IMG/VR virus record: IMGVR_UViG_3300025849_000281
Span: 1 to 20,476 of that record
Origin: a virus
Strand: one strand, 5' to 3'
Length of the DNA stretch: 20,476 nt
Positions 1-17,770 of the stretch are shown piece by piece (positions within the stretch are counted from its first letter, which is position 1; every line of letters begins with the position of its first letter). A program made the translations under genes and the position numbers. The notes beneath the pieces are model-generated. The model did no database searches and had not been told where the DNA came from. It saw nothing but the letters and a program-made list of their open reading frames with translations.

Positions 1-3000
1 TGTTTAATCTCATCACGTGTAATTTTATCATTAGGCTCAAAGATATATGGCTTAGCAAGTGTGTTAAGTTGACTACGTAAGTAGATAACCAAACGTGCTA
101 CGTTAATTCTATCTAAAGCACTTGCGCCTCTTGCACGAGTTTTTTGTCCAAAGTTAACAAGACCTGCACCTGTAATAAACGTAATTGGGTTCACACTGTT
201 TGAATACAAAGTGTCTCTTTGTCCTTCATTAAGTGCTACACTTACAAATTCGCCTTCGTTATTAATATAACCTGTTGAACTTGCATTTGTAATTCCGCCA
301 CGTCTTGTACCTGCTGGTGCAAACCATGGATAACTTACTTGATCGCTTAATGCTATTGTGCGTAGCATCATGTGTGAAGCTGGAACTACAACATTGTTAC
401 CAAAGTTGTCGCTTGCAAATCCTGCAGGATAAAATACACCTAAGTATTCATCTCTACTTACAAGTCCGTTGTCATTATCTTCTACTGCTGTATTAACGTT
501 TGTTCCCCACTCATTTAATGAAGTTGCATCTGGTTTTAGTCTCATTGGACTATCACCTAAGATAAATGCTGTTAAGCCTCTGTCATTATTAAGTGAAATC
601 ATTTCGCCAATTAGTTCTGGATAACCTGGTGTTGCCATTAAGTTAAACAATCTTGATTCATCATCTCTAATTTCATCATTGTTATTAACTACTGCTTGGA
701 TTGCTTGTACAACTACTTTACGTTGTGCTTTACGTCCAAAGCTACCTGAACCGTCTGCTTGATTAGCTGAATCAGTTACCCATCTGTGTGGATAGTAACC
801 GCTCATTGGTACAGCGCCTGCAACGCCCATACGTAAATTATCTGCTGAAGTATCAATGTAGTTACGCTCAAAACGCTTAACATTAAATCCGCTTCTACGT
901 AGGTTCCATAACAACATACCTTTTGGATATAGTGCCGGATCTGGAGCATCTGGGTCTAAGTAGTTACTTGCTACTAATTCTGCAATTGTTCCACTTGGTG
1001 CAACTGTTGCTGTACCACCTGATGTTCCGTAACGTGCATCATCAAAAAGTATACCGTCTTCAGTAGTTTGATCACTAGTGTCGATTGGTGCTCCCCATTT
1101 CTGAGCAGTTGTTCCGCTTAATGCACTGTTGTATTTGTATATTGTTGGATAGTTTTCTAAGTCTGCTGTACTAACCCAAAGATCGCCTGTTACAAGTGCG
1201 CTACCATCTGATTGTACAGTTGGCATACTTGCTGAAACAATAGGTCCTTGATCATCTGCACTTGGATATGCTGTTGCATCATTGTAACCTACCCATGTAG
1301 TACCGTTATGATACATAATATCAACTTCGTCTACAATTGAATTATACCAACGCTGTCCGTCTGCTGCCAACGATGTTGGAGCATTGTCACTTGCAGTATA
1401 TGTTAGTACACGCCAATTTGAAGCTGCAAATTGTTTTGGACTTGTAGCATTTGTTGTTCCATCTACAAAGGATAATCCTGGTGTAGAAGATGAATCAGTT
1501 GCTACATACGGCTTAAACCCAATAGTGTTTAATAATCCGCTTGTATCTACTAAGTTAATTTCGCCGCCTTGTGAATGTGAAATAACAACTTTATTTGCTG
1601 CATCTACACTTGCACTTACGTTTGCAACACCTGCTGCTGTAATTGCACTTGCAATTGTGTCTGCATCTGCTGTTGATCCAGCAGTAGTAGTTACTGTAAC
1701 TGTAACTGGTGCTGACATTGTTGCGCTACCTTTGTTGCTAGACGACATAGTAAATGTAAATGGTCCGCCTGCTCCTGGGGAAACTGCTGTAATTGCTGCA
1801 CTCTTAACTTGAGTAGCACCTGTTGACTGTCTACGATAAATTGTAAATGTACCTAATGGCTGTGCGTCATTTGCAACATTTGTTTTTGCAAAAAGATCGC
1901 CAATTGCTAAATTAGCTCCGCCACCTGTACTATCTAATCCATATAATGCTGATGCATTATTGTCGTACATTGGAGTTGTTTTTGTGTCCCATAGTAGTGT
2001 TTCTGTATTCCAAAGTTTAGTAACAAGTTTTGCACCTGCATTTGGAGTTGTAGTTTTTAACCATACACTACCTGTAGGTCTTGGTGTTGTATCACCTGAT
2101 TTAAATTCTGGCACACTAGTATGTGCTGAAATTTGTAATGCTGGTGGGTTGTATGTTCCTGCTGTAAGTCCTAGTGCAGTAAGTTTATCAGCATCACCTC
2201 CGATAACAACTGGACCGCCTAGTGTACTATCAGAAGCACCTGAACTTGTACCGTCACTGTAAATTTCTAAAAACCCGTCTACAACGTTTGCTGTAATGCC
2301 AGGAATTAATGCACCATTAATGTTATTTTTAACATCAGTAATTGTATTTGCGCCAACACTAATTGCAGTACTATTAATTTCAATGTCTGCTGCAGGTGAT
2401 CCTAAAGTTGGATTAGCAACTGTGCCTTTTACTGTTGGCCAGCTCTTAGTCCAATTATCACTGCCTAGTTCTACCCAAGAACCGCTTGCATTTTTGTACC
2501 AAATTTTATTAAGTGTTGTAACTGCTACAACTGCATAATCGCCTATTGCACCAATTGATGCTTTTGGAGTATAATCTGCACCATCGTAGTCTACAACGTC
2601 AGCTGGTTTTGAAATAACTGTAGGAACTTTATTTGAAAAAGTTTGTCCGCCTGCAGTATTAACTGCGTTTGCATTCCACTGTTGTAATCCAAATAATGAA
2701 TCTTGTGTATCAAACCAATATGTTCCAGCTAACGGATTAGCCGCTGGTGCTGTTGCTGTTGGACTTAGTTCACCTAAATCAATATCAGCACGTACAACGT
2801 ATGCTCTGTTGCTTACACCTAATAATGAATAAGCTGCTTGTAATCCGTATTCGTTTAACTCGCCGCCGTGTACTGGGTTATTACTGCTATCTACTTGGAA
2901 AGTTGGATCTCCAAATGTATCAGCTAAATCTCTTTGTGAAGTTAGCAAGTATGGTTTACCTGCGTTTGCTTTTAATGTACCTTGAGCTGTTCCTGTTCCT

Positions 3001-3122
3001 GCTGCATTAGTTTTATTACTAGCAGAAGCAACAAAAATCATTGGTACGGTACCTGGCTCAGCTGGTGTGTAAAAACTTTCGTCTATTACGCTGACCTGTA
3101 CTCCTGGTGATGTCAATGCCAT
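1..3122 (-). CDS. gp18: Contractile tail sheath protein (T4 gp18-like), C-terminus off the window
   Basis: Forms the contractile outer tube of a T4-type tail. The start is set by ATG at 3122 (protein begins MALTSPGVQVSVIDES), preceded by an AGGAG site about 8 bases upstream and a CTAAATAC late-type box. The frame is open to base 3, giving at least 1040 residues, against about 660 for T4 gp18. The N-terminal ~120 residues (VQV.VID, PGTVPMIFVA, SQRDLADTFGDP, GLQAAYSLLGVSNRAYVVRADIDL) and the part after residue ~730 (KGMLLWNLRRSGFNVKRFERNYID, then RLFNLMATPGYPELI, and LAKPYIFEPNDKITRDE at the edge) are typical sheath sequence. Between them lies a Thr/Ala/Asp-rich insertion of about 600 residues. 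It includes two stretches (about 244-324 and 470-538) that resemble flagellin/hook IN modules and several WYKNASGSW/MYHNGTTWVG-type strand repeats. Identity as sheath is firm. The role of the insertion, probably surface decoration of the tail, is inferred. Confidence 0.9.
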   Translation of the reverse strand, partial: MALTSPGVQVSVIDESFYTPAEPGTVPMIFVASASNKTNAAGTGTAQGTLKANAGKPYLLTSQRDLADTFGDPTFQVDSSNNPVHGGELNEYGLQAAYSLLGVSNRAYVVRADIDLGELSPTATAPAANPLAGTYWFDTQDSLFGLQQWNANAVNTAGGQTFSNKVPTVISKPADVVDYDGADYTPKASIGAIGDYAVVAVTTLNKIWYKNASGSWVELGSDNWTKSWPTVKGTVANPTLGSPAADIEINSTAISVGANTITDVKNNINGALIPGITANVVDGFLEIYSDGTSSGASDSTLGGPVVIGGDADKLTALGLTAGTYNPPALQISAHTSVPEFKSGDTTPRPTGSVWLKTTTPNAGAKLVTKLWNTETLLWDTKTTPMYDNNASALYGLDSTGGGANLAIGDLFAKTNVANDAQPLGTFTIYRRQSTGATQVKSAAITAVSPGAGGPFTFTMSSSNKGSATMSAPVTVTVTTTAGSTADADTIASAITAAGVANVSASVDAANKVVISHSQGGEINLVDTSGLLNTIGFKPYVATDSSSTPGLSFVDGTTNATSPKQFAASNWRVLTYTASDNAPTSLAADGQRWYNSIVDEVDIMYHNGTTWVGYNDATAYPSADDQGPIVSASMPTVQSDGSALVTGDLWVSTADLENYPTIYKYNSALSGTTAQKWGAPIDTSDQTTEDGILFDDARYGTSGGTATVAPSGTIAELVASNYLDPDAPDPALYPKGMLLWNLRRSGFNVKRFERNYIDTSADNLRMGVAGAVPMSGYYPHRWVTDSANQADGSGSFGRKAQRKVVVQAIQAVVNNNDEIRDDESRLFNLMATPGYPELIGEMISLNNDRGLTAFILGDSPMRLKPDATSLNEWGTNVNTAVEDNDNGLVSRDEYLGVFYPAGFASDNFGNNVVVPASHMMLRTIALSDQVSYPWFAPAGTRRGGITNASSTGYINNEGEFVSVALNEGQRDTLYSNSVNPITFITGAGLVNFGQKTRARGASALDRINVARLVIYLRSQLNTLAKPYIFEPNDKITRDEIK

Positions 3123-3228: not shown

Positions 3229-3564
3229 ATGCGACCATTGTGCAAATGCGGACAACGTCCTGCAGCTATAAATTATAAAAAAGGCAAAAAAGTCTATTAT
3301 AGAAAGCTATGCGAGCGTTGCTTACGTAACGGTGTTAATCATGGTGTACCATTATGGAAACAACGAGGTTACGAGAAAAAGAATATTTGCGAAAAGTGCG
3401 GTTATACTAGTAAACACTTAGAACAATTTAATGTGTTCCATATTGACGGAAATTTAAAAAATTGTAGCCCAACTAATCTAAAAACTATATGTGCAAACTG
3501 CCAAAGAATTATGCAGAAGCAAGGAGTTCGTTGGAAACAAGGCGATCTTGTACCTGACTTTTAA
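3229..3564 (+). CDS. Small HNH-type zinc-finger endonuclease-like protein
   Basis: A 111-residue basic protein with two Cys-pair clusters: C5/C7 with C28/C31, and C54/C57 with C88/C91. Between the second pairs is an HNH-like core FHIDGN (H71, D73, N75) followed by N83 in TNLKT. This is the layout of small phage HNH proteins. The last His of a canonical HNH motif, expected right after the CxxC, is Q92 here, so cleavage activity is not assured. It lies alone on the plus strand between the sheath gene and the dNMP kinase, and its last 56 bases overlap the 3' end of the kinase gene on the other strand. It could be a homing-type free-standing nuclease, or a DNA-binding protein that has lost nuclease activity. 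A strong AGGTGAGG site supports the start. Confidence 0.6.
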   Translation: MRPLCKCGQRPAAINYKKGKKVYYRKLCERCLRNGVNHGVPLWKQRGYEKKNICEKCGYTSKHLEQFNVFHIDGNLKNCSPTNLKTICANCQRIMQKQGVRWKQGDLVPDF

Positions 3565-4491: not shown

Positions 4492-5241
4492 TTAGCCTAT
4501 TAGGAAACTGTATCCTGCACCACCAGCAACTTGTGTTTTAACTTCTTCTTCAAGTTTATCCATTTCGCTTTGCGCTTCTGCTTTTAAACTTTGACCGTTT
4601 AAACTTGTTCCACCTTGTGGTCCAGCAATAGTAGCAAATTTTTCTCTTGCTTCTCCTAACATATATTTACAGGCTGCTAATGTATAATCTTTGATCCATT
4701 GTTGAGTTAGATAATCATTCATTAGTTGATCGTCTGGACGATAATTGTAACAGTATAATAGTAGTGTTTCTTCAGCTCGCGGACGTTGTAATAGTGTTAA
4801 TTTTTTAGTCTGTGTGTTCCATTTAAATTCTATAAATGATCCAAACATTCTTCCTACTAGTTCTTGGTATTGACTAAACATATCATATGTAGCTAATCCG
4901 CCCATATTAGAACTTGATAGTAAATATGCGTTTGTGTAGGCTAAGTTAAAAGGTTCAAATATACTTCCACCGTCACCTCCACCTGATCTAGCACCAACAC
5001 TTCTACGGAACAGTTTTCTAACTTCTACTATTTCGTTTGGTAATGTATACTCATTTTGATCTATAACAGTTGGCATAAAGAAATACGACTCTTCTACACT
5101 ATTGTCGCTACGTTGTCTAAAACGTGTGAGTGCTTTTTTTAATGCTGTTTCGTAGTGAATAGGATCGAGCTCAACATCGACCATGCCTCCACCTAGCATT
5201 GCGTGTACGTAATCAAATATTTCTTGCTTTTGTATTGCCAT
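4492..5241 (-). CDS. gp13: Neck / head-completion protein, T4 gp13-like
   Basis: A 249-residue soluble protein. The N-terminal helical part (IFDYVHAMLGGGMVDVELDP, then HYETALKKALTRFRQRSDNSVEESYF) followed by DQNEYTLPNEIVEVRKLFRR has the layout of phage head-tail connector and neck proteins of the gp13 kind. In those, an N-terminal helix bundle precedes a beta sandwich. An FGSFIEFKWNTQTKKLTLLQRP stretch and a short C-terminal helix follow. The start is supported by GGAG upstream and a GATAAATACTATT late promoter. Directly across the divergent gap lies the gp14-like gene, its usual partner. In cyanophage-type genomes such proteins are often only called structural, so the gp13 name rests on architecture and context. 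A conserved virion protein is near certain. Confidence 0.6.
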   Translation of the reverse strand: MAIQKQEIFDYVHAMLGGGMVDVELDPIHYETALKKALTRFRQRSDNSVEESYFFMPTVIDQNEYTLPNEIVEVRKLFRRSVGARSGGGDGGSIFEPFNLAYTNAYLLSSSNMGGLATYDMFSQYQELVGRMFGSFIEFKWNTQTKKLTLLQRPRAEETLLLYCYNYRPDDQLMNDYLTQQWIKDYTLAACKYMLGEAREKFATIAGPQGGTSLNGQSLKAEAQSEMDKLEEEVKTQVAGGAGYSFLIG

Positions 5242-5258: not shown

Positions 5259-5267
5259 GTATTTATC
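5259..5267 (-). promoter_or_regulatory. Late promoter for the gp13-like gene
   Basis: On the minus strand this is GATAAATACTATT, identical to the T4 late consensus except for the first base. It ends 17 bases before the gp13-like ATG at 5241. It is framed by a perfect 6-base inverted repeat, CCAATA (5253-5258) and TATTGG (5269-5274). Confidence 0.75.
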
Positions 5268-5291: not shown

Positions 5292-6433
5292 TGTATATGC
5301 CAAGATTAAGTTTATACAAGCCACAACGCGGTAATGATTATAGTTTTATAGACAAGCAAGTCTATGAAATGTTCACGGTTGGTGGCACGGATATTAATAT
5401 CCACAAGTTCCTAGGTGCTGAAAATCCTAGTGATGCAGATGCAACTGCTGATCAGCCACAATACGATGCTGTTAAAGAAACTAATATACAAGATTTATTA
5501 TTTCTTGAAAATAGAGATCGTAAGTACGATCCCGATGTTTATACAATGCGTGGCATTTATAATGTGCAAGATATTGATTTTAACCTTAGCCAATTTGGTT
5601 TATTTTTAAGTAATGATACACTATTTTTAACAATACATATTAATAGTAGTGTAAAAACTCTTGGCAGAAAAGTAATGGCAGGTGATGTAGTTGAATTACC
5701 ACATTTAAAAGACGAATATGCACTAAATGATTTATCATTTGCTCTTAAACGCTTTTATGTTGTAGAAGATGTAAACAGAGCTGCAGAAGGTTTTTCACAA
5801 ACTTGGTATCCGCATTTATATAGATTAAAATTAAAACAAATAGTAGATAGCCAAGAATTTAAAGAAATACTCGACTTACCTGCAGAAGAAGGTGCTACAG
5901 GTGGAGACACACTACGTAGTTTGCTTAGTACATATGATAAAGAAATGCAAATTAATAATGCTGTAGTTGCCCAAGCAGAAGCTGATGCACCTAAGGCAGG
6001 ATATGACACTAGCCATTACTATAGTTTGCAACTTGACAAAAATGGCAATACAGAATTAGTAGACACAGACGGGGACAATATACCCGATACTATGCAAAGT
6101 CCTGTTAAGTCAGGATACAACGGATATTTATTAGGTGACGGAATACCAACTAACGGCGAAGCATTTGGACACGGTATATCATTTCCATCTAATACTACAA
6201 CTGGTGATTTCTTCTTGCGTACAGACTTTTCGCCAAATAGACTATTTAGATTTGACGGTACTCGTTGGGTTAAACAAGAAGACAATGTACGCATGACACT
6301 AACTGGTACAAACACACGCACACATCAAAAAGGTACTTTTGTAAACAATACTACAACAAATACTATTGCAGGTGAAACAGTTGAAGAAAGACAGAGTTTG
6401 TCAAAAGCACTTAGACCAAAGGCAGATGAATAA
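5291..6433 (+). CDS. gp14: Neck-type virion structural protein, T4 gp14-like
   Basis: A 380-residue protein. The core (LLFLENRDRKYDPDVYTMRGIYNVQDIDFNLSQFGLFLSNDTLFLTIHINS, then GDVVELPHLKDEY, then ALKRFYVVEDVNRAAEGFSQTWYPHLYRLKLKQI) follows the gp14 order of a KFG-type strand, a GD-V-ELP element and a final YRLK strand. The C-terminal third (FDGTRWVKQEDN) is an extra linker/beta region not in T4 gp14 (256 aa). MPRLSLYKP starts at the second ATG (5297), and either start is possible because the late promoter overlaps the first. No Shine-Dalgarno site is seen. The stop overlaps the next ATG (TAATG). Divergent from the gp13-like gene and two genes before gp15, this keeps a 13-14-15 grouping. It is certainly a virion protein, and the gp14 name is likely but not proven. 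Confidence 0.6.
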   Translation: MYMPRLSLYKPQRGNDYSFIDKQVYEMFTVGGTDINIHKFLGAENPSDADATADQPQYDAVKETNIQDLLFLENRDRKYDPDVYTMRGIYNVQDIDFNLSQFGLFLSNDTLFLTIHINSSVKTLGRKVMAGDVVELPHLKDEYALNDLSFALKRFYVVEDVNRAAEGFSQTWYPHLYRLKLKQIVDSQEFKEILDLPAEEGATGGDTLRSLLSTYDKEMQINNAVVAQAEADAPKAGYDTSHYYSLQLDKNGNTELVDTDGDNIPDTMQSPVKSGYNGYLLGDGIPTNGEAFGHGISFPSNTTTGDFFLRTDFSPNRLFRFDGTRWVKQEDNVRMTLTGTNTRTHQKGTFVNNTTTNTIAGETVEERQSLSKALRPKADE

Positions 6434-7512
6434 TGAGATATAAAGATTTAAAGATAGTAGAAAATTTTAAACCCGGTGATGAACTATGTGCAGGTATTGT
6501 CAGGTTAAAAAAGAAGCAAAAAGATATGGATGCTGACTCATTTAAAATGTTTTACGGAGATAGCTGGAAAAGATTAGAACACAATATAAAAAGATATTTA
6601 CAACAATTTCCAGATCCGGCAGTAGCCGCTAAAATTAAGAAATGTTGGCTAGCCGCTGGACAAGCAGATTTTGGATTCGGAGACGGTGATGGCGTAATTG
6701 GTGGAAATAAAAAAGGTACAGATAATAACGGCGTAATTGGTGGAAATAAAAAAGGTACAGATAATAACGGCGTAATTGGTGGAAATAAAAAAGGTACAGA
6801 TAATAACGGCGTAATTGGTGGAAATAAAAAAGGTACAGATAATAACGGCGGTACAGATAATAACGGCGGTACAGATGTTAAAGGTGGACAAACAATTAAT
6901 GATAAGTTTGGTACTGAAATGGCCACATTTGGAAATTTCCTAGACAACAATGACTTGGAAGGTGCTTTAGCATTCCTAGACGGAAATCCAGGATTTGCAA
7001 AAGCAATTGGACCAAAGTTTAGAACAGATATTCAATCTGCTTTAGATGCTGCAGAAGCAAAAGAACAAAATAGAATTGCACAAGAAAAAGCTGACAAGGA
7101 AGCTGAAGAAGCCAAACGTATTGCAGACGAAAAGGCAGCAAAAGAAGCTAAAGAAAAAGCCGATGCAGCTGCAGAAGCTAAACGTATTGCAGATGCAGAA
7201 GAGAAAAAACGACTTGATGCTATCGAAGCTGAAAAGAACGCAGCAGAAGCTAAGAGATTAAAAGACGCAGCTGATGCAAAAGCTGAACAAGAACGTCAGC
7301 AAGCAGAACTTGATAAGTTAGAAAAAGAAGCTGAAGAAGCTCGTATTGCAGCTGACAAACTAGAAAAAGAAAGAATAGAAGCTGAAAAAGAAGCCAAGCG
7401 TATAGCTGCTGAAAAAGAAGCAGAAGATTTAAAAAAACCTAAATCCAACTCTCCACAAACAGATGATACACCAGGGGATGTTGAAGAATTTGACTGGGAG
7501 GATTTACAATGA
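6433..7512 (+). CDS. Repeat and coiled-coil protein of unknown function (359 aa)
   Basis: I do not recognise a family. There are four parts. Residues 1-86 form a compact basic domain beginning MRYKDLKIVE. Residues 87-144 are four identical copies of GVIGGNKKGTDNN plus one short GGTDNN, encoded by perfect DNA repeats. Residues ~150-204 form a small domain with NFLDNNDLEGALAFLDGNPGF. Residues ~205-335 are a very long Ala/Lys/Glu helix (AKRIADEKAAKEAKEKADAA type), TolA-like only in composition, which would form a rigid rod or coiled coil. The C-terminus DVEEFDWEDLQ is acidic. It is translationally coupled to both neighbours (TAATG before, ATGA after), inside the gp14-gp15 operon. A virion or assembly scaffold role is plausible by position. 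Confidence 0.75.
   Translation: MRYKDLKIVENFKPGDELCAGIVRLKKKQKDMDADSFKMFYGDSWKRLEHNIKRYLQQFPDPAVAAKIKKCWLAAGQADFGFGDGDGVIGGNKKGTDNNGVIGGNKKGTDNNGVIGGNKKGTDNNGVIGGNKKGTDNNGGTDNNGGTDVKGGQTINDKFGTEMATFGNFLDNNDLEGALAFLDGNPGFAKAIGPKFRTDIQSALDAAEAKEQNRIAQEKADKEAEEAKRIADEKAAKEAKEKADAAAEAKRIADAEEKKRLDAIEAEKNAAEAKRLKDAADAKAEQERQQAELDKLEKEAEEARIAADKLEKERIEAEKEAKRIAAEKEAEDLKKPKSNSPQTDDTPGDVEEFDWEDLQ
6691..6864 (+). repeat. Perfect in-frame tandem repeat: 4 x 39 bp plus an 18-bp partial unit
   Basis: The units start at 6691, 6730, 6769 and 6808. Each begins GGCGTAATTGG and ends GGTACAGATAATAAC, and all four are identical base for base. At 6847-6864 an 18-base short unit keeps only GGC plus the last 15 bases, and a diverged start of another follows at 6865. 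Each unit adds 13 residues, so copy-number change keeps the frame. The lack of any silent difference points to recent expansion by slippage or recombination. Confidence 0.97.
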
Positions 7513-10583: not shown

Positions 10584-10852
10584 TGTTTCCAAAGTTAAAA
10601 GAATCTACGAAGTTTAAAAAAGATCTAGAACGTTTTACTTTGGCATTAAATAATTGTCCTGAAGAATACAAAGGACGAATGCAAGAGTTATACAATGATT
10701 GGACAACTAATGCAGATCAGATAGATATTGGACATGATTTAAACTTAGGTGCAACTATTGATCCTAAAAGTTTGAAAGATACAAGATTTACTTTGAATCG
10801 TACTAGAACACAACTTTTAGATTTGATGAAAAAATTATCTTTAAATTACTGA
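10583..10852 (+). CDS. Small protein of unknown function (89 aa)
   Basis: I do not recognise it. It is a helical, charged soluble protein (FPKLKESTKFKKDLERFTLALNNCPEEYKGRMQELYNDW, ending TRTQLLDLMKKLSLNY). Its ATG overlaps the cupin-like stop (TAATG), so it is the last gene of the plus-strand operon. Its 3' end overlaps the convergent fibre gene by 12 bases, with no room for a terminator. The gene is supported by coupling and plausible codon use, while function is unknown. Confidence 0.65.
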   Translation: MFPKLKESTKFKKDLERFTLALNNCPEEYKGRMQELYNDWTTNADQIDIGHDLNLGATIDPKSLKDTRFTLNRTRTQLLDLMKKLSLNY

Positions 10853-12415
10853 TATACGTTTAACGGTTATAGCACCAACCATAGATGCATGCAGTGTACA
10901 TTGATATCTATAGTTACCCGAAATAGTTTCTGGCACTTCCCAATATAATGTCCCGGCATCTTTTCCGTTAGCACTTGCTCCTGTACTTACATTACCAATA
11001 ACATCAACGTGTACAAGGCCTGTTGAGTATGCGGTTCCAGTACCATCTTGTATTTCAAATGGATGTCCGCCAATGCCGTCTAGATCAAACGCAATAGTCA
11101 TACCACCAATAGCATATAACGTAGGATTGTTTCCACTATATCCATGGCTGTCAACACTATATGCAGTATTACCTACATTATTCATTCTAATCATTGCCAT
11201 AGCAGGCATATAACTTTTATCAATAGTTCTACCAGTTCTGCCAACTTCTTCTAAGTTGTCATAACGTGTTACGCCCAATGTACCTGTAAAGTTAATTGTA
11301 ATAGTATCGTTTGATGCACTTGTTGATATGTTTGTTCCACCTGCAATAGTCATAGTATCTGTTATACTATTTGCAGTAAGTGAACCTGCATCACCGTTAA
11401 ATTGATACCATAAGTTTTGATCTGGATCTCCGCCGCCACCGCTTACTGTGTCTGGACCCCATGAATCGCCGTCCCATACAAGTGCTTGGCCTGTTGCCGG
11501 AGCAGTTGCATCTACGTTTGCTAAACTTGCTAAAGTAGAACTAGTATCTAATGCATCGGTTATTCCATAACCAGCAATAGTAGTCGGCTTTGCACCTAAG
11601 TCTGCAAAGTTTACAACAGCATCAGTTATTCCATACCCTGCTATAGTAGTTGGTTTTGTACCTAAATCGGCAAAGTCTACTACTGCATCGGTTATTCCAT
11701 ATCCTGCTATAGTAGTTGGTCTACTTGTTAAACTACTAAACACACCGTCAAATAATAAAGTTGTAGTGTCTGTTAAGTCACTTACGTCTGCTGGAATAGT
11801 TGGTGTGTTTTGTAAGTTATTATAGTTTAAGAAATAGATACTATCTTGGCCATCTAATGTGTCTGCATCTGTTCCTGCACCACCTGTTGTAGCGTCAGTA
11901 CCAGGTGACCATTTAGCGCCGTCCCATTTTAATACATTACCTGCTACAGGAGTTGTATTAGTTGTATCAACATCAGTTAAATCGTCAATACTTAGACTAG
12001 GAGTAGCCCCTGTTATAGTTAATGTTTTACCTGATATTCCTGTGCTTACATTTCCTGCACCTGCAAAAGTAATTGCATCAGTTGTGCTGTCAGCTGTAAC
12101 ATTGCCAGCATCACTATTAATTGTTACAAATACATTTTGATCTGGATCACCTAGTGTTCCAGTCATATTTAAAGTAACAATATCTCCTGTTACTGCACTT
12201 GACATATTTGTACCACCAGCAATAGTAAGTGTGTCTGTTGGACTATTTGCTGTAGTTGATCCTGTATCGCCTGCTACTGTTTTAAATTGATCAACATTGG
12301 CTGCTGCTACAGCTCCGCTGTCGACTAGCCATGCTGTACCATTCCATTTCCAAGTGGTAGTGCCGTCTGTAAATGTATCGTCTAGTACCGGTGATGCCGG
12401 AAAATTTAATGCCAT
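10841..12415 (-). CDS. Tail fibre-like virion protein with a C-terminal cupredoxin-like domain
   Basis: A 524-residue protein. It begins with a short fibre-type segment (FPASPVLDDTFTDGTTTWKWNGTAWLVDSG). Three diverged beta repeats built on DTLTIAGGTN...TLG follow, then a LDGQDSIYFLNYNNLQNTPTIP element, then three 22-residue PTTIAGYGITDAV..FADLG.K repeats typical of phage fibres. The last ~100 residues are different. GHPFEIQDG (H451) and YRYQCTLHASMVG (C506, H509, M512) match the His/Cys/His/Met ligand set of type 1 copper proteins, with the C-x2-H-x2-M spacing of amicyanin. It has a late-type AATAAATA box and an AGAGG site. The likely place is the virion surface, with host contact inferred. 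The copper-site idea is a hypothesis. Confidence 0.8.
   Translation of the reverse strand: MALNFPASPVLDDTFTDGTTTWKWNGTAWLVDSGAVAAANVDQFKTVAGDTGSTTANSPTDTLTIAGGTNMSSAVTGDIVTLNMTGTLGDPDQNVFVTINSDAGNVTADSTTDAITFAGAGNVSTGISGKTLTITGATPSLSIDDLTDVDTTNTTPVAGNVLKWDGAKWSPGTDATTGGAGTDADTLDGQDSIYFLNYNNLQNTPTIPADVSDLTDTTTLLFDGVFSSLTSRPTTIAGYGITDAVVDFADLGTKPTTIAGYGITDAVVNFADLGAKPTTIAGYGITDALDTSSTLASLANVDATAPATGQALVWDGDSWGPDTVSGGGGDPDQNLWYQFNGDAGSLTANSITDTMTIAGGTNISTSASNDTITINFTGTLGVTRYDNLEEVGRTGRTIDKSYMPAMAMIRMNNVGNTAYSVDSHGYSGNNPTLYAIGGMTIAFDLDGIGGHPFEIQDGTGTAYSTGLVHVDVIGNVSTGASANGKDAGTLYWEVPETISGNYRYQCTLHASMVGAITVKRISVI
11553..11716 (-). repeat. 66-bp fibre repeats encoding TIAGYGITDA
   Basis: Equivalent points fall at 11553, 11619 and 11685 (66-base spacing). 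Each unit codes for PTTIAGYGITDAV plus FADLG.K, with the third copy truncated on its far side. Unlike the 39-bp repeat at 6691, the copies have many silent differences, so they are older. Confidence 0.85.
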
Positions 12416-12432
12416 AATAAACCTCTACTAAT

Positions 12433-12440
12433 ATTTATTC
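12433..12440 (-). promoter_or_regulatory. Late-type promoter box for the fibre gene
   Basis: The minus strand reads AATAAATATTAG, ending 17 bases before the fibre ATG at 12415 and followed by an AGAGG ribosome site. The core matches the late boxes near 5.2 kb. Confidence 0.6.
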
Positions 12441-12443
12441 ATA

Positions 12444-14957
12444 TTACGATTTTGAAATTGTAACTCCGCCTGATATATTATACGGTTGTCTACCGTATTT
12501 ACTATATAAAAATTTATTAGGTGCCCCTAATAACGATGTTCCAAATTCTGTATAATCGGAATCTGAGCCTGTTGAAAATAATGTTGGCTTTGATTCACTT
12601 AAAATTTTATCTTTTACACCCTTAGGAGATAGTGTTGGCTGTACTGTAAGATACTGTGCCATTACACCTGCTACTTGCGGTGCTGCCATACTAGTTCCAT
12701 TAATTAGTGCTATTTTATAACTTGTATTTGGAGTATAATCACCTGTGGTGTATATTGATGTTGTACTACATGTACTTATTATATTTGTTCCTGGCGCATA
12801 ACAAGTTAATCTTGGACCTCTACTAGAACTATTACTAGTTTTATCTAAAAAGGTTGCTCCGCTTTGTTGTGTTGTTGAATCTGAATTGCCTACTATAATA
12901 GCTTCGTCACTATGTGGACTAGAACCTCTATGATAATAGTAAGTGGTTGCTCCGTATACTACATTATTATCGTAGTCGACACCTCCTACAACATCTCCTT
13001 TATAATAATCGTTGCCTGCAGCAATTACTACATGTATTCCTGCATCGATCATATCTTCGATTTCAGCATCAACTGAAGGAACTCTAGCAGGAATAATTCT
13101 ATTTTCACCATTTACTGGAACTACTATTCCAGTAGCTTGCCAAAGAGCAAGATTAGCTACATAATCAACTCCCCAAGTCCAAGCAGATCCTCTATAATTT
13201 CCACTTGTAGGACTGCCACCTATAGTAGCACTGTATCCCCAACTCATGTTGACTATGGTTGGTCTTCCATTTGTTTTTGCTGCATGCCATAATCTGATAG
13301 CATCAAATGCATCTGAAATAGGAATGCCTGAATTAGGGTCTGATGGTGCTTCTAGTCCTGCTAACTTTTGAGAATATATATGTGCCTTTTTAGCCCAGCC
13401 GTATGTTTTGCCAGCTGCAATACCTGCACAGTGTGTACCGTGACCATCAAAATCTCTATAATGATTTACGTTTTGTGTACCTGACAATCCGCTCTCTGTA
13501 TACCAATCAATTTGTTGTACACGAGATGTTCCTCCACTTGAAGAAACAACATAGCCTGATGCACCTGCTAAACTCGGATTGTCTTGTGCTGGTGTATTCC
13601 CGTCTTGGAATATACTTCTAATTGTTGTTAACGAAGGCTTACTAATAACAGGAGCAATATATGAATTGTGTAATGCGTAACCTAACGGATTATTAGATTG
13701 TATACCTGCCGGAGTACGCATACTATCGCTCCATTCAGGACTAAGACTTCCACCTTCCCATAAACTTGTGTATTCAAACATACAAAAATTTAGTAGATAC
13801 AAGTATTCCTTAGCTGCTACTTCAAATGCATCTCCACTAGTTTTAAAAGCACCCGGACTTGGCTCGTAGCCTGATGGATCCCACATGCCTGCGTCATACG
13901 CTTCTACCATTGCATTATACAAAGGACCAGTTGCCCAGTCAGCACTTATAAAAGGATACATTTTTAATGTTTGTGCATCTAACCCATGCATATGTAATGT
14001 ATGGAATACGTGTTCGATAACTTCCTGTGCATCTATATCACCATCACCATAACCATCACCAGTTGAATTTAAATACCACACCATATCGTTTTGAACAGTA
14101 TTATCAAACAAGTCTGTTAGATTCCAAAATATAATGCCAGCATCTGTTAAAAAATTTGTGCTATAGTCTGAGCCAGCACCTCTTGCTACTCTTTGTATTG
14201 TTGGTACCCCTGCATGATATGTTCCTGTGTCACCACTTAGATTTTGTATTAATGCTCGTTGTGCTGATCCGTTTATTCCGGCGCCATTTGGATCTGTAAA
14301 AAGTTCAAACATACGTCCGACTTTTTCTAGCCACGCATCTGGTACTGCTGTTTGGCCACCTACTGTGCCAGCACCCATTATTCTTACACCATTTACAGTA
14401 ACTTCACGTTTGAAGAAATCACTACCGTCTCCGACAACATTAATAATTGCACCGTTATTATATTCTGGATCAACTGCTGCTCCTCCGTCTATAAATTCTG
14501 GATGATCAACTTGTAGTCCACTGTCTTGAATTACAATGTCAACTCCGGTACCATCTAATGCATATGGATATTGGTTAGATGCTGTTGCACCATCACTGTA
14601 TACATTAGTAGCTTCTATACAACGTCTTAATCCCCAATTTACTTTATCTGTTTCTAGTACAGTAGGTTTAGTAAAATCAGAAGTTTGTGTTGCTTTAATT
14701 CCAATTTGAATATCGTTTCTTTGATCAGGTGGTATTTCTACACTTAATACTCTTTCGTCGCTTAATAATTCTTGTGCTTCTTCATCAGTAAGCATCCAAT
14801 GAGTCATTCTTTTACTGCCGGGTCTAGCATTTGCAACTTCAATAGCTCTACTAGGTATAGCAGAACTATCGCCGTATTCAGTAGCCATTTCGTTGTCAAA
14901 CTCGGCTAGATCTACGCCTCTATTTACAACAACAATATATTCTCTTTCGTTACTCAT
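12444..14957 (-). CDS. Subtilisin-like serine protease (peptidase S8) with a large insertion
   Basis: An 837-residue protein. Residues 1-120 look like an inhibitor-type propeptide (REYIVVVNRGVDLAEFDNEM, MTHWMLTDEEAQELLSDERVLSVEIPP). The subtilase catalytic set is intact: D145 (IVIQDSGLQVDHPEF), H506 (GHGTHCAGIAAG), oxyanion N649 (IAAGND) and S756 (NGTSMAAPQVAG). D145 and H506 are separated by 361 residues, against about 32 in subtilisin. The insertion carries a 12-residue EF-hand-like loop at 301-312 (D-G-Y-G-D-G-D-I-D-A-Q-E), immediately followed by the His-rich EHVFHTLHMHG (315-325). No signal peptide is present, so it is probably a virion or cytoplasmic protein. It sits between the propeller and fibre genes. 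Likely roles, all inferred, are cleavage of host surface proteins on contact or of tail proteins during assembly. Confidence 0.88.
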   Translation of the reverse strand: MSNEREYIVVVNRGVDLAEFDNEMATEYGDSSAIPSRAIEVANARPGSKRMTHWMLTDEEAQELLSDERVLSVEIPPDQRNDIQIGIKATQTSDFTKPTVLETDKVNWGLRRCIEATNVYSDGATASNQYPYALDGTGVDIVIQDSGLQVDHPEFIDGGAAVDPEYNNGAIINVVGDGSDFFKREVTVNGVRIMGAGTVGGQTAVPDAWLEKVGRMFELFTDPNGAGINGSAQRALIQNLSGDTGTYHAGVPTIQRVARGAGSDYSTNFLTDAGIIFWNLTDLFDNTVQNDMVWYLNSTGDGYGDGDIDAQEVIEHVFHTLHMHGLDAQTLKMYPFISADWATGPLYNAMVEAYDAGMWDPSGYEPSPGAFKTSGDAFEVAAKEYLYLLNFCMFEYTSLWEGGSLSPEWSDSMRTPAGIQSNNPLGYALHNSYIAPVISKPSLTTIRSIFQDGNTPAQDNPSLAGASGYVVSSSGGTSRVQQIDWYTESGLSGTQNVNHYRDFDGHGTHCAGIAAGKTYGWAKKAHIYSQKLAGLEAPSDPNSGIPISDAFDAIRLWHAAKTNGRPTIVNMSWGYSATIGGSPTSGNYRGSAWTWGVDYVANLALWQATGIVVPVNGENRIIPARVPSVDAEIEDMIDAGIHVVIAAGNDYYKGDVVGGVDYDNNVVYGATTYYYHRGSSPHSDEAIIVGNSDSTTQQSGATFLDKTSNSSSRGPRLTCYAPGTNIISTCSTTSIYTTGDYTPNTSYKIALINGTSMAAPQVAGVMAQYLTVQPTLSPKGVKDKILSESKPTLFSTGSDSDYTEFGTSLLGAPNKFLYSKYGRQPYNISGGVTISKS

Positions 14958-14965
14958 TATAATAC

Positions 14966-16267
14966 TTATACCTTATACAAATATGCAACACCACTGTTGT
15001 CAGCACCTACGTCATCTTCAGTTTTTACACCGACACACAATCTAGTACTATTCATACTCATTACATCACCAAATTTATCATTATCTACATTGCCAAATGC
15101 ATTTGGATTGTCCAGAGTTTTTATAAGTGATCCGTCTGACATACTAAAAATGTAAACAACTCCGCTAGACTGACCAGCTGCTGTATCTTCGTCTTGTGCG
15201 GTTACTGCACAGTAACTATTATTAATAGCAACTTCTGAACCAAAGTAATCGTTATTTACAGTACTATATGCATTTGGATTTGATAGTCTTCTTAATAGTG
15301 TCCAAGATCCTCCAGATAACTCATATATAAATGCATTACCACTATTTGTTCCGTCAATATCTTCTCCTGGTGCTCCTACTATAATATAGTTTCCACTTAT
15401 GTCAACACTATATCCAAACTGGTCAAAGTTATCAGTTCCAATAGCTGGTCCGTTTGGATTAGGATTTAAAATTGTTTGTACTGCTCCTGTAGCGTTTGTT
15501 ATAATATGTATTGCACCACTATCACCGCCGCCTGTTGCACCAGCTGTATTTTCTCTCCAACTTCCGACGACTGTATATGTATCATTCATTGCAAGTGTTT
15601 GTACATTGCCGCCTAATTGATCTCCAGGATATTCATCTTCTGCATCAATGTTTGGGTTTTTGATAGAATGTAACAAACTACCGTCACTAGTATCAAATAT
15701 ATAAATCCAACCAGTATCGTCACCTATGCCAACTTCATCTTCACGTGGAGCTGCAACTGCCGCATAGTTTTCAGATATAGCTACACTACTACCGAATGCA
15801 TCACCGTTTGGATTAACTTCAGTTGTTGTAGGATTTGGATTTGCAAGTGTAAAAAGCAAACTGCCATCTGTAATGTCAAATATATAAGCTGCACCTGTAT
15901 CTGTATCTGCACCAATATCTTCTCTTTCTGCACCTGCAATAATATAGCTGTCAGAACATGCAACTGCTGTACCAAATTGGTCGCCTTCTCCTAAACCCGG
16001 AGGTGCAGTAGTACTAGGATTATCAATAGTATATTGTATTAAGCCTGCACTATTAAACACATAAACTTTACCGTTTTGTGAAGCTGCCGCATCACTTTCA
16101 ATACTACCAATAACAACGTAACTATTATTAACAGCAACACTGTTTGCAAAATAGTCATCCTGTTTTACATCGTACGCATTAGGGTTATCAATTTGTTTGA
16201 TAAACTTAAATTCCGATTGCGGACTACTAAAAAATATGTTACTAGTTAAAGATCCTAAACGAGGCAT
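14966..16267 (-). CDS. Seven-bladed FG-GAP-type beta-propeller, likely tail adhesin
   Basis: 433 residues made almost wholly of seven repeats on the plan D.FG.SVAI..NY..VGA..ED......G..YIFD..DGSL. They begin near residues 38, 96, 156, 216, 280, 340 and 397. Most blades are joined by an NPN(A/P/I) motif. Acidic ED loops in each blade are the kind that bind calcium in integrin-type propellers. The short N-terminal strand FKFIKQIDNPNAY probably closes the ring against the last blade. There is no signal peptide, no membrane segment and no extra domain. It lies 6 bases after the fibre/cupredoxin gene and 8 bases before the protease start, on the same strand, with only a weak ribosome site. Binding to a host surface polymer is inferred from the fold and the neighbours. 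Confidence 0.85.
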   Translation of the reverse strand: MPRLGSLTSNIFFSSPQSEFKFIKQIDNPNAYDVKQDDYFANSVAVNNSYVVIGSIESDAAASQNGKVYVFNSAGLIQYTIDNPSTTAPPGLGEGDQFGTAVACSDSYIIAGAEREDIGADTDTGAAYIFDITDGSLLFTLANPNPTTTEVNPNGDAFGSSVAISENYAAVAAPREDEVGIGDDTGWIYIFDTSDGSLLHSIKNPNIDAEDEYPGDQLGGNVQTLAMNDTYTVVGSWRENTAGATGGGDSGAIHIITNATGAVQTILNPNPNGPAIGTDNFDQFGYSVDISGNYIIVGAPGEDIDGTNSGNAFIYELSGGSWTLLRRLSNPNAYSTVNNDYFGSEVAINNSYCAVTAQDEDTAAGQSSGVVYIFSMSDGSLIKTLDNPNAFGNVDNDKFGDVMSMNSTRLCVGVKTEDDVGADNSGVAYLYKV

Positions 16268-16273
16268 TGGCTG

Positions 16274-17740
16274 TTATCCATAGTTTGTATAACCACCTAA
16301 CACAGTCCATGTTGTACCTACTCTTAATAAAGAGAACGTAATTACGTCTATTGAATTTGCGTTTCCTGTAGGTGCAAGAGTTTCAACCCAATTTATTGTT
16401 TGGGCTACTCCGTCAATTTGTACTGCATTTGGCACATACGGTGTTGCACCTTGACGTAATACAAGAACAACGTTTAACGCTCTATCAGAAGTCGTTGGTA
16501 CATTAGTTATATTTGCTGTAAAGTTTGCTGCAATAGAAGTATGATCAAATATTGCATTTGTAGCAAAGTCGTGTGCAACAACTCCAGTTGCTCCAGTCAA
16601 CGACGATAATATTTCAGATTGTTTTGATATGTTTTCTAATAATATTCCGTCCGGTGCATCTAATGTAATAGTTGAAGCACTATCAAATACTGCTCCGCCT
16701 GCTCCGCTATTAGTAAAACTAGGTGTTGTAAGACTTGCAAAAGTTACGCTATCTGATGTATTCAGACTTTGGTCATATGATCCACCACCGCCTCCACCGC
16801 CGCCTGTGCTATTAATAGTTAGTGTATTACTGGCTTCGTCGATAGTCATTGTAATATTTGTGCCAGCTGTAAAGTTTAGTGTATCTGATTTTGTAGATGC
16901 ATCTATACTTTGGGCGCCGCCTGTAATTTGTACACTACTAAATGTACTAAAATCTGGTACAGGAGCAGTTGGTTGTACCCATTGACTACTGTCAGTATCA
17001 GTAATGTAAACAAATAATGATCCAGTCGCACTATCGAACCAAATGCTTCCTTCACTAGGTGACCCTGGCGGCGTATCACTTATATCAACACTTGCTCCTC
17101 CACCACTGCCTGAGCCTGTACCAGGATCTGCTACTGCAATACTATTACCTTGATTTGTATGAAAATGACACCAATAATATAGTGTGTCTGGTGCACTACT
17201 TTTAACAGTAAATAAAACTTTTTTTGTTGTTGCACGTTGAAAATTATCTGTGTAGTATCTCATTGATACAGGATCGTCGTCTAGTAAATAAACTATACCT
17301 GGATTGTAATGTGCGCCACCTTCAATTAGATCGCCATTAGGCGTAGTTGCAAACATTAACGGATGCCATAAATTAGCATATGAATTATTTGTTTCGTCAG
17401 ATTGATCAAATAGATACGTATATCCTCTAACTAAATTTAACTGAGGTTTTTCTACTCCGTCAATATAAAACACACCAGTTGCTTGACCGTTTGCTGTGTC
17501 AACGCCTACTGTGACTGTTCTTTCAAGTAATGCTACACCAGCGTCTGCAAGTTGTTGCGATAGGTTCCCTGATGTTAGTAGAGTATATCCGCCGGCTAAC
17601 TTGCCGCTGTAAACTCTAAGTGTATTTGCTTGTTTATCGTAAAAAACTTCACCACTTGCACCAACGTTTCTGTCAAGAAAATCGTCTGGTCTTGGTATGA
17701 TCCGAATTCTATCTACTACTGGTGCTGAATTTGATGACAT
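16274..17740 (-). CDS. Fibre-like virion protein with an internal cupredoxin-like domain
   Basis: 488 residues. Residues 1-70 (IIPRPDDFLDRNVGASGEVFYDKQANTLRVYSG) are a common marine phage virion start. Residues ~75-205 look cupredoxin-like: NLVRGYTYLFDQSDETN, WHPLMFATTPNG (H126) and TLYYWCHFHTNQGNS (C191, H194, Q197). A Gly/Ser linker and an EGSIWFDSATGSLFVYITD..QWV strand repeat follow. Then come beta repeats with a run of eight glycines, and a C-terminal domain (~365-488; SLTGATGVVAHDFATNAIFDH ... VLVLRQGATPYVPNAVQIDG) found at the ends of many phage fibres. A late-type GATAAATAC box and a GAGGAAA site precede the start. It is the first gene of the adhesion set. Confidence 0.78.
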   Translation of the reverse strand: MSSNSAPVVDRIRIIPRPDDFLDRNVGASGEVFYDKQANTLRVYSGKLAGGYTLLTSGNLSQQLADAGVALLERTVTVGVDTANGQATGVFYIDGVEKPQLNLVRGYTYLFDQSDETNNSYANLWHPLMFATTPNGDLIEGGAHYNPGIVYLLDDDPVSMRYYTDNFQRATTKKVLFTVKSSAPDTLYYWCHFHTNQGNSIAVADPGTGSGSGGGASVDISDTPPGSPSEGSIWFDSATGSLFVYITDTDSSQWVQPTAPVPDFSTFSSVQITGGAQSIDASTKSDTLNFTAGTNITMTIDEASNTLTINSTGGGGGGGGSYDQSLNTSDSVTFASLTTPSFTNSGAGGAVFDSASTITLDAPDGILLENISKQSEILSSLTGATGVVAHDFATNAIFDHTSIAANFTANITNVPTTSDRALNVVLVLRQGATPYVPNAVQIDGVAQTINWVETLAPTGNANSIDVITFSLLRVGTTWTVLGGYTNYG

Positions 17741-17761: not shown

Positions 17762-17770
17762 GTATTTATC
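17762..17770 (-). promoter_or_regulatory. Late promoter for the adhesion gene set
   Basis: The minus strand reads GATAAATACATAC, ending 21 bases before the ATG at 17740, with GAGGAAA between. It lies in the gap after the small gene ending at 17778 and can drive the fibre, propeller and protease genes. Confidence 0.7.

What the first reader, a model, noticed from the sequence alone, without database searches (positions are those of the whole stretch)
10841..17740. A compact host-contact module: fibre, propeller, protease, fibre
Four same-strand genes with short gaps encode a cupredoxin-like fibre protein, a seven-bladed FG-GAP propeller, a subtilase and a second cupredoxin-like fibre. Late boxes precede the first and last genes. 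Binding and cutting functions together suggest an adsorption apparatus that both recognises and degrades a proteinaceous host surface layer.
Basis: inference. Interest (0 to 1): 0.55.

Follow-up and report, generated by a model that had tools for sequence, protein, structure and literature searches.

The report
Roaming enzyme-like domain in phage tails
The four neighbouring phage genes are a real tail/host-contact cassette, but the striking part is hidden inside its protease: a 313-residue, enzyme-like domain of no known family that keeps jumping, whole and in frame, between different tail proteins of unrelated marine phages.

Summary
The four genes are there as described. In relatives, fibre-subtilase-fibre is a recurrent cassette; the propeller is an optional extra (7 of 44 subtilase ORFs). 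The same module sits C-terminally or at a third site in other subtilases, inside giant baseplate proteins of cultured cyanophages, in tail-fibre proteins, and once as a gene of its own (120 distinct modules, 40 flank combinations). Near-identical subtilase genes carry unrelated module alleles or none; cultured S-RIM12 phages differ by a clean 957-bp in-frame module. Trees and synonymous sites show repeated horizontal exchange. The module is under purifying selection (dN/dS about 0.14) and keeps a putative metal site (H86, E150-x2-E153-H154-x2-H157-x2-H160, E222-Y223) in at least 119 of 120 copies. Its confident model resembles gluzincin metallopeptidases only weakly (Z 7.4) and lacks HExxH. 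Best reading: a mobile metalloenzyme-like domain displayed on the adsorption apparatus. Mobility is well shown; catalysis and virion location are inferred.

The parts
17763..17769 (-). late-promoter-like box ATAAATA before fibre f1
   Evidence: ends 22 bases before the start codon; consensus match only
16274..17740 (-). f1: 488-aa tail fibre/baseplate-type protein with cupredoxin-like segment (H126, C191, H194, Gln197)
   Evidence: PHROGs phrog_708, phrog_9729; ligand conservation
14966..16267 (-). FG-GAP propeller, seven repeats; accessory gene of the cassette
   Evidence: PF14312 E 6.4e-46; present in 7 of 44 subtilase loci
12444..14957 (-). subtilase (S8), 837 aa; catalytic Asp145, His506, Ser756, oxyanion Asn649, invariant in 20 of 20 aligned relatives
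   Evidence: PF00082, alignment A2, Foldseek of the modest model to aqualysin I, E 7e-10
13533..14471 (-). inserted mobile module, subtilase residues 163-475, between Asp145 and His506
   Evidence: empty site in L014-L017; same module in other proteins; alignment A1; model pLDDT 92.6
13992..14024 (-). putative metal-site helix of the module: E150-x2-E153-H154-x2-H157-x2-H160 (subtilase residues 312-322)
   Evidence: E150 120/120, E153, H154, H157 and H160 119/120; coordinates
14214..14216 (-). module His86 (subtilase residue 248), invariant
   Evidence: 120/120
13803..13808 (-). module Glu222-Tyr223 (subtilase residues 384-385), invariant, on the second helix; possible third ligand
   Evidence: 120/120 each
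12432..12438 (-). late-promoter-like box ATAAATA before fibre f2
   Evidence: ends 16 bases before the start codon
10841..12415 (-). f2: 524-aa fibre with gp9-connector-like C-terminal region and full cupredoxin-like ligand set (H451, C506, H509, M512)
   Evidence: phrog_677 E 7e-69; 14/14 conserved

Best explanation
The window holds a late-expressed tail/adsorption cassette (fibre, optional propeller, subtilase, gp9-like fibre). Its subtilase carries, in the loop between catalytic Asp and His, a self-contained 313-aa domain that is exchanged as a unit, in frame, among tail proteins of unrelated marine phages (shown by sequence). The most likely working is that this domain is a metal-dependent hydrolase or hydrolase-like domain with a gluzincin-type fold (inferred) that the phage displays at the tail tip (inferred from the carrier proteins) to attack something common to many hosts' envelopes during adsorption or penetration, for example a peptide bond of an envelope protein or of peptidoglycan (inference). 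Subtilase loops and baseplate proteins serve as interchangeable docking sites: because the domain folds on its own and joins through short linkers (start DPEYNNG, end ASGYVVD), insertion leaves the carrier intact, so recombination can spread it. Steps shown: boundaries, empty sites, allele swaps, transfer between carriers and phage lineages, purifying selection, conserved putative metal residues. Steps inferred: metal binding, catalysis, substrate, presence in the virion.
For: Empty site: L014-L017 have the same subtilase (89-90% identical) without the 313 residues. Allele swap: L002 and L008 subtilase genes are mostly 95-100% identical in DNA before the module and 78-100% after it, but 32-73% per 60-base block inside; backbone 97% vs module 49% amino-acid identity, pS 0.16 vs 0.64. 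Reverse discordance: L005-L160 backbone 58% (pS 0.65) vs module 92% (pS 0.31); window-L002 backbone 54% (pS 0.64) vs module 85% (pS 0.44). Cultured phages: 7 S-RIM12 records lack, 19 S-RIM12/Syn33 records carry, the module (clean 957-bp insertion). 120 distinct modules in 40 flank combinations; third subtilase site and C-terminal site; own gene in L163. Trees: 32 context changes on the module tree; the module data reject window+L001+L082 (AU p 0.003) although the backbone groups them with L014/L017 (92/92). Constraint: dN/dS about 0.14. Putative metal residues conserved in 119-120 of 120, in a pLDDT 92.6 model; the 49 listed VIA-align rows are zincin-type metallopeptidases or lethal-factor-family structures. 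Carriers: cyanophage baseplate wedge proteins, PHROGs tail families. The window's own sheath and neck proteins resemble jumbo phages at 36-45%, not the Kyanoviridae that carry its 85%-identical module.
Against: No activity, metal or virion data. The best Z is 7.4, below the level the tool calls safe, and Foldseek alone finds nothing significant in PDB. The canonical HExxH is absent in every module aligned, so an inactive, binding-only domain is possible. Some contigs are metagenomic, so single chimeras cannot be excluded (the cultured isolates are not open to this objection). The model of the whole subtilase is only moderate (pLDDT 66.6), so the geometry of module and active site is unknown.
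Confidence: 0.55

Rival explanations
1. The module is a non-catalytic receptor-binding or adhesion domain built on a metallopeptidase-like scaffold; swapping it changes which surface ligand the phage touches.
For: It sits in tail fibre and baseplate proteins; alleles are swapped in otherwise identical genes, as receptor-binding domains are (Smug et al., PMC10684548, passages seen); HExxH is missing.
Against: A-type copies stay about 80% identical across phages with very different structural genes and dN/dS is about 0.14, unlike a fast-diversifying specificity domain; charged and His residues of the putative site are near invariant.
Confidence: 0.27
2. The module is a selfish or neutral passenger, an intein-like or otherwise mobile protein insert that is tolerated because it sits in surface loops.
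For: Presence/absence polymorphism, many insertion sites, no obvious link to one carrier.
Against: Strong purifying selection. It ends proteins and is a gene of its own, which a splicing intein could not do. No homing-endonuclease family hit.
Confidence: 0.08
3. The module regulates or matures its carriers: an intramolecular chaperone or processing protease that trims tail proteins during assembly.
For: It is covalently joined to tail proteins and inserted between catalytic residues of the subtilase; some phage tail proteins are processed by fused domains (recalled).
Against: Carriers exist as lineages without it: empty subtilases and S-RIM12 isolates lacking it keep intact carriers. No shared cleavage site was looked for.
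Confidence: 0.1

Closest known systems
Domain mosaicism of phage receptor-binding proteins and endolysins (Smug et al. 2023, PMC10684548; passages seen)
   Same: Recently exchanged protein fragments, at least 50% identical, in otherwise unrelated tail proteins; enzymatic domains among them.
   Different: Here one family-less, putative metalloenzyme domain moves into the catalytic core of a protease, into baseplate giants and into fibres, also across phage lineages; no passage seen names it, and 'cyanophage' does not occur in the main text.
Ig-like domains scattered over phage structural proteins (recalled; related papers seen in search listing only)
   Same: Optional, portable domain on many virion proteins.
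   Different: The module is 313 aa, mixed alpha/beta, with conserved acidic and His residues, not a small beta sandwich.
Gluzincin zinc metallopeptidases: Pro-Pro endopeptidases (PPEP), lugdulysin (M30), M1 aminopeptidases, M34 fold
   Same: Weak but consistent fold similarity; long helix with His/Glu pairs and a second helix with a Glu.
   Different: EHxxH in place of HExxH in all sequences shown; 6-12% sequence identity in the structural alignments; no Pfam, NCBIfam or significant PDB sequence match.
Peptidase S8 subtilases
   Same: Carrier enzyme with intact Asp-His-Ser and Asn.
   Different: A 313-aa foreign domain between Asp and His; virally encoded within a tail-gene cassette.

Membership tests
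Peptidase S8 (subtilase) | Profile match over the catalytic domain | tested here: met
   PF00082 E 8.2e-25, residues 486-789
Peptidase S8 (subtilase) | Asp-His-Ser triad and oxyanion Asn | tested here: met
   D145, H506, S756, N649 invariant in 20 of 20
FG-GAP beta-propeller | FG-GAP profile and about seven repeats | tested here: met
   PF14312 E 6.4e-46; seven repeats counted by eye on starts listed
Cupredoxin (type-1 copper) | His, Cys, His, Met ligand set | tested here: met
   f2: 14 of 14. f1 differs: His/Cys/His in 9 of 10, fourth residue Met in 7 and Gln in 3
Cupredoxin (type-1 copper) | Match to a cupredoxin profile | tested here: not met
   No such Pfam family for the window f1 and f2 or for 14 f2 homologues at E up to 0.1
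Gluzincin metallopeptidase (M34/PPEP-like) | HExxH motif | tested here: not met
   ExxEHxxH instead; E150 120/120, E153, H154 and H157 119/120
Gluzincin metallopeptidase (M34/PPEP-like) | Gluzincin fold | tested here: inconclusive
   VIA-align Z 7.4, 156 residues, rmsd 4.9 to PPEP-2; Foldseek not significant
Gluzincin metallopeptidase (M34/PPEP-like) | Bound zinc and proteolysis | not testable with these tools
   needs protein
Recently mosaic phage protein (Smug et al.) | Shared fragment at least 50% identical in otherwise unrelated proteins | tested here: met
   about 80% identity across subtilases and baseplate giants
Intein | Internal position only, splicing out of the host protein | tested here: not met
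   C-terminal copies and a stand-alone gene
T4 gp9 baseplate-fibre connector (f2) | Profile match over the protein | tested here: inconclusive
   phrog_677 best stretch covers residues 284-519 only

The most novel reading that the evidence does not exclude
A new family of virion-borne metalloenzymes with an ExxEHxxHxxH helix spreads as a protein-level cassette through the ocean's phages: one warhead-like domain, docked in whichever tail protein is at hand, with gain, loss and allele replacement between phages of unrelated lineages.
Probability: 0.4. Interest if true: 0.85.

Novelty: new variant of a known kind. Interest (0 to 1): 0.68.

Why it matters
Most phage tail genes in the ocean have no assigned function. 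Here is a single domain that evolution has moved again and again into the host-contact machinery of very different phages while conserving it strongly, which points to a general job at the cell surface. Cultured Synechococcus phages that naturally differ by this one domain already exist, so its effect on adsorption and infection can be tested without building anything.

Tried and rejected
Four-gene unit: rejected, because the propeller is in only 7 of 44 subtilase ORFs. Plain long subtilase: rejected, because residues 163-475 are a separate domain with empty sites. Intein: rejected. Common bacterial domain: one relative in the genome-contig scan (pattern-limited), in Litorivicinus; 1 of 369 genomes of its class and 1 of 398 of its phylum, the same genome both times; no plasmid hit. 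Anti-phage defence: no PADLOC hit for the module. A viral scan with the Litorivicinus module found nothing. Fold search in BFVD: nothing significant. Whole-subtilase model: pLDDT 66.6, too weak to place the module relative to the active site. Site repeats at the junctions: none seen by eye in the S-RIM12 pair. Literature: nine searches listed no paper whose title or shown abstract describes this module; only PMC10684548 and PMC3037559 were opened, passages only. Rows dropped before counts: the module tree left out the Litorivicinus copy, copies under 270 residues and identical copies; the 120-module set left out copies not reaching profile positions 25-285, and the locus duplicates L084 and L086. 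Searches were capped: 80 of 227, 80 of 193, 80 of 82 relatives kept.
Full report
What is there. The four genes lie on the minus strand in the order fibre f1 (17740-16274), propeller (16267-14966), subtilase (14957-12444), fibre f2 (12415-10841), with gaps of 6, 8 and 28 bases. Pfam gives FG-GAP_2 for the propeller and Peptidase_S8 for the protease; PHROGs gives tail families for both fibres. ATAAATA boxes end 22 and 16 bases before f1 and f2; such boxes are rarer in the window than chance predicts (5 against 12.6), and three of the five lie 16-22 bases before a start codon on the same strand (the third, at 5260, precedes the gene starting at 5241). The cupredoxin-like call rests on conserved ligands, not on a profile match.

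Is the set conserved? Among 44 subtilase ORFs from viral contigs and the window, f2-like proteins lie directly downstream in 32; directly upstream is f1-like in 23, the propeller in 7 (with f1 beyond it), another fibre with f2-type repeats in 6, something else in 4, and the contig ends in 4. Near-identical contigs are included, so these are not 44 independent events. Fibre-subtilase-fibre is thus a recurrent cassette and the propeller an accessory.

The hidden module. tblastn of the protease against cultured phages gave, best of all, residues 158-461 at 82-84% identity inside a baseplate wedge protein of Synechococcus phages, not in a protease. Compared with 80 viral contigs, the same stretch lay between the catalytic Asp and His in some subtilases, at the C-terminus in others, and in giant tail proteins. 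Aligned copies start at DPEYNNG and end at about ASGYVVD. The carrier's triad is intact in 20 of 20. In L154 the module lies between His191 and the Ser motif at 784, a third site. In L163 it is a gene of its own, next to a fibre-like gene and a gene that looks like a T4-type lysozyme (the latter judged by eye).

Evidence that it moves. (i) Empty site: L014-L017 carry the same subtilase without it, aligned DNA 83-98% identical per 150-base block between window and L014. (ii) Allele replacement: in L002 and L008 the subtilase DNA is mostly 95-100% identical before the module and 78-100% after it, with 32-73% per 60-base block inside; amino-acid identity 97% outside, 49% inside. (iii) The opposite discordance: L005-L160 58% outside, 92% inside; window-L002 54% outside, 85% inside, with synonymous differences lower inside too (0.31 vs 0.65; 0.44 vs 0.64), so recency and not only selection is at work. 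(iv) Trees: on a tree of 79 modules the 22 carrier contexts need 32 changes (21 is the least possible; shuffled mean 49.6); the Asp-His slot alone needs 11, of which well-supported branches force 4. The subtilase backbone joins window, L014, L017, L001 and L082 (92/92), while the module data reject window+L001+L082 (AU p 0.0028), window+L082 (0.0044) and, marginally, window+L001 (0.046). (v) Cultured phages: 26 records of S-RIM12 and Syn33 match the baseplate gene above 94%; 7 lack the module, 19 have it (four are RefSeq duplicates). In one pair a 957-bp in-frame insertion separates flanks 92.5% and 97.7% identical. (vi) Lineage: the window's sheath and neck proteins resemble jumbo phages (Atu_ph07, Phosso, PA5oct) at 36-45%, yet its module is 84.6% identical to that of S-RIM12, a member of the Kyanoviridae.

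How wide is the family? 85 of 50,697 phage records, no plasmid of 72,556, one bacterium, Litorivicinus, at 38% identity in a 687-aa frame. A second, 44-48% identical type fills the same subtilase slot and further proteins. From 237 module-bearing ORFs (duplicate loci included) I kept 120 distinct full-length modules, 35-100% identical to the window's; they fall into 40 left/right flank combinations, 40 of 120 in the subtilase Asp-His slot. Several combinations hold one row or a cut end, so 40 is an upper estimate of carriers. One carrier type with clear PHROGs hits is 'baseplate wedge subunit', another 'tail fiber protein'; 3 of 9 carriers scanned had no hit.

What it may be. No Pfam, NCBIfam or PHROGs family; PDB sequences only at E 0.11 or worse. 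AlphaFold2 on 49 copies gives pLDDT 92.6. Foldseek finds nothing significant; the second look by VIA-align lists 49 entries, zincin-type metallopeptidases or lethal-factor-family structures throughout, best PPEP-2 with Z 7.4, 156 residues, rmsd 4.9. Z under 8 may mean only a common arrangement. Independently, H86, E150, E153, H154, H157, H160, E222 and Y223 are kept in 119 or 120 of 120 copies: helix 144-163 carries E-x2-E-H-x2-H-x2-H and helix 213-231 carries E222. That is what a metal site on a gluzincin-like pair of helices would look like, but with EHxxH where gluzincins have HExxH (motif recalled). So 'it looks built like a metallopeptidase' is tenable; 'it is an M34 or PPEP member' is not, since a defining motif was tested and not met. 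dN/dS is about 0.14 (249 of 253 A-type pairs finite), so it is functional, not debris.

Mechanism, with certainty. Shown: an independently folding (predicted), sharply bounded domain moves in frame among tail-type proteins. Inferred: it is displayed on the tail, binds metal, and acts on an envelope component shared by unlike hosts. The argument for a shared target is that it stays about 80% identical while its carriers and phages differ, unlike specificity domains. Subtilase and module together would then give one protein two cutting functions. I put metal-dependent hydrolysis near 0.55, binding only near 0.27.

Known and new. Exchange of enzymatic domains among receptor-binding proteins is well documented (PMC10684548, passages read). 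New here is the domain, its putative metal motif, its use of the catalytic core of another enzyme as a docking site, and the natural plus/minus pairs in culture. Virion proteomics exists for S-SM1, S-PM2 and Syn9 (PMC3037559, passages); whether module-bearing carriers were tested there I could not see.

Noticed in passing
10841-12415 and 16274-17740: Both fibre proteins carry conserved type-1-copper-like ligands; f2 keeps His/Cys/His/Met in 14 of 14 relatives, f1 varies Met/Gln at the fourth position. Why fibres should bind copper is unexplained.
   Followed up: partly
3-3122 and 4492-5241: Tail sheath (1040 aa or more, open at the window end) and neck protein are nearest to jumbo phages Atu_ph07, Phosso and PA5oct, not to marine T4-like cyanophages.
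   Followed up: partly
6433-7512: A 359-aa protein with four near-perfect repeats of NGVIGGNKKGTDN followed by a long charged Ala/Glu/Lys stretch.
   Followed up: no
3229-3564: A 111-aa plus-strand frame with Cys pairs that looks like an HNH-type endonuclease by eye, beside the sheath gene.
   Followed up: no
14718-14957 (subtilase residues 1-80): N-terminal 80 residues are well predicted (block means of pLDDT 74-91) within the weak whole-protein model and look like a subtilisin propeptide (resemblance by eye).
   Followed up: no
L085:9998-12058: Litorivicinus sp. frame with the module at its N-terminal side and a dockerin-like repeat near its end, the only bacterial relative found.
   Followed up: partly
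L076 module end: The entry motif DPEYNNGP recurs right after the module's exit (SGYVVSNGSTQDPEYNNGPL), possibly a scar of an earlier insertion.
   Followed up: no
L163:5929-6930: Module as a gene of its own, about 20 extra N-terminal residues, between a fibre-like gene and a lysozyme-like gene.
   Followed up: partly
L083 (Syn33) and L165-L168: The cyanophage baseplate protein carries, upstream of the module site, a YHYH-like stretch (HSKVLGMSFDGYPIYGPYGY), name recalled.
   Followed up: no
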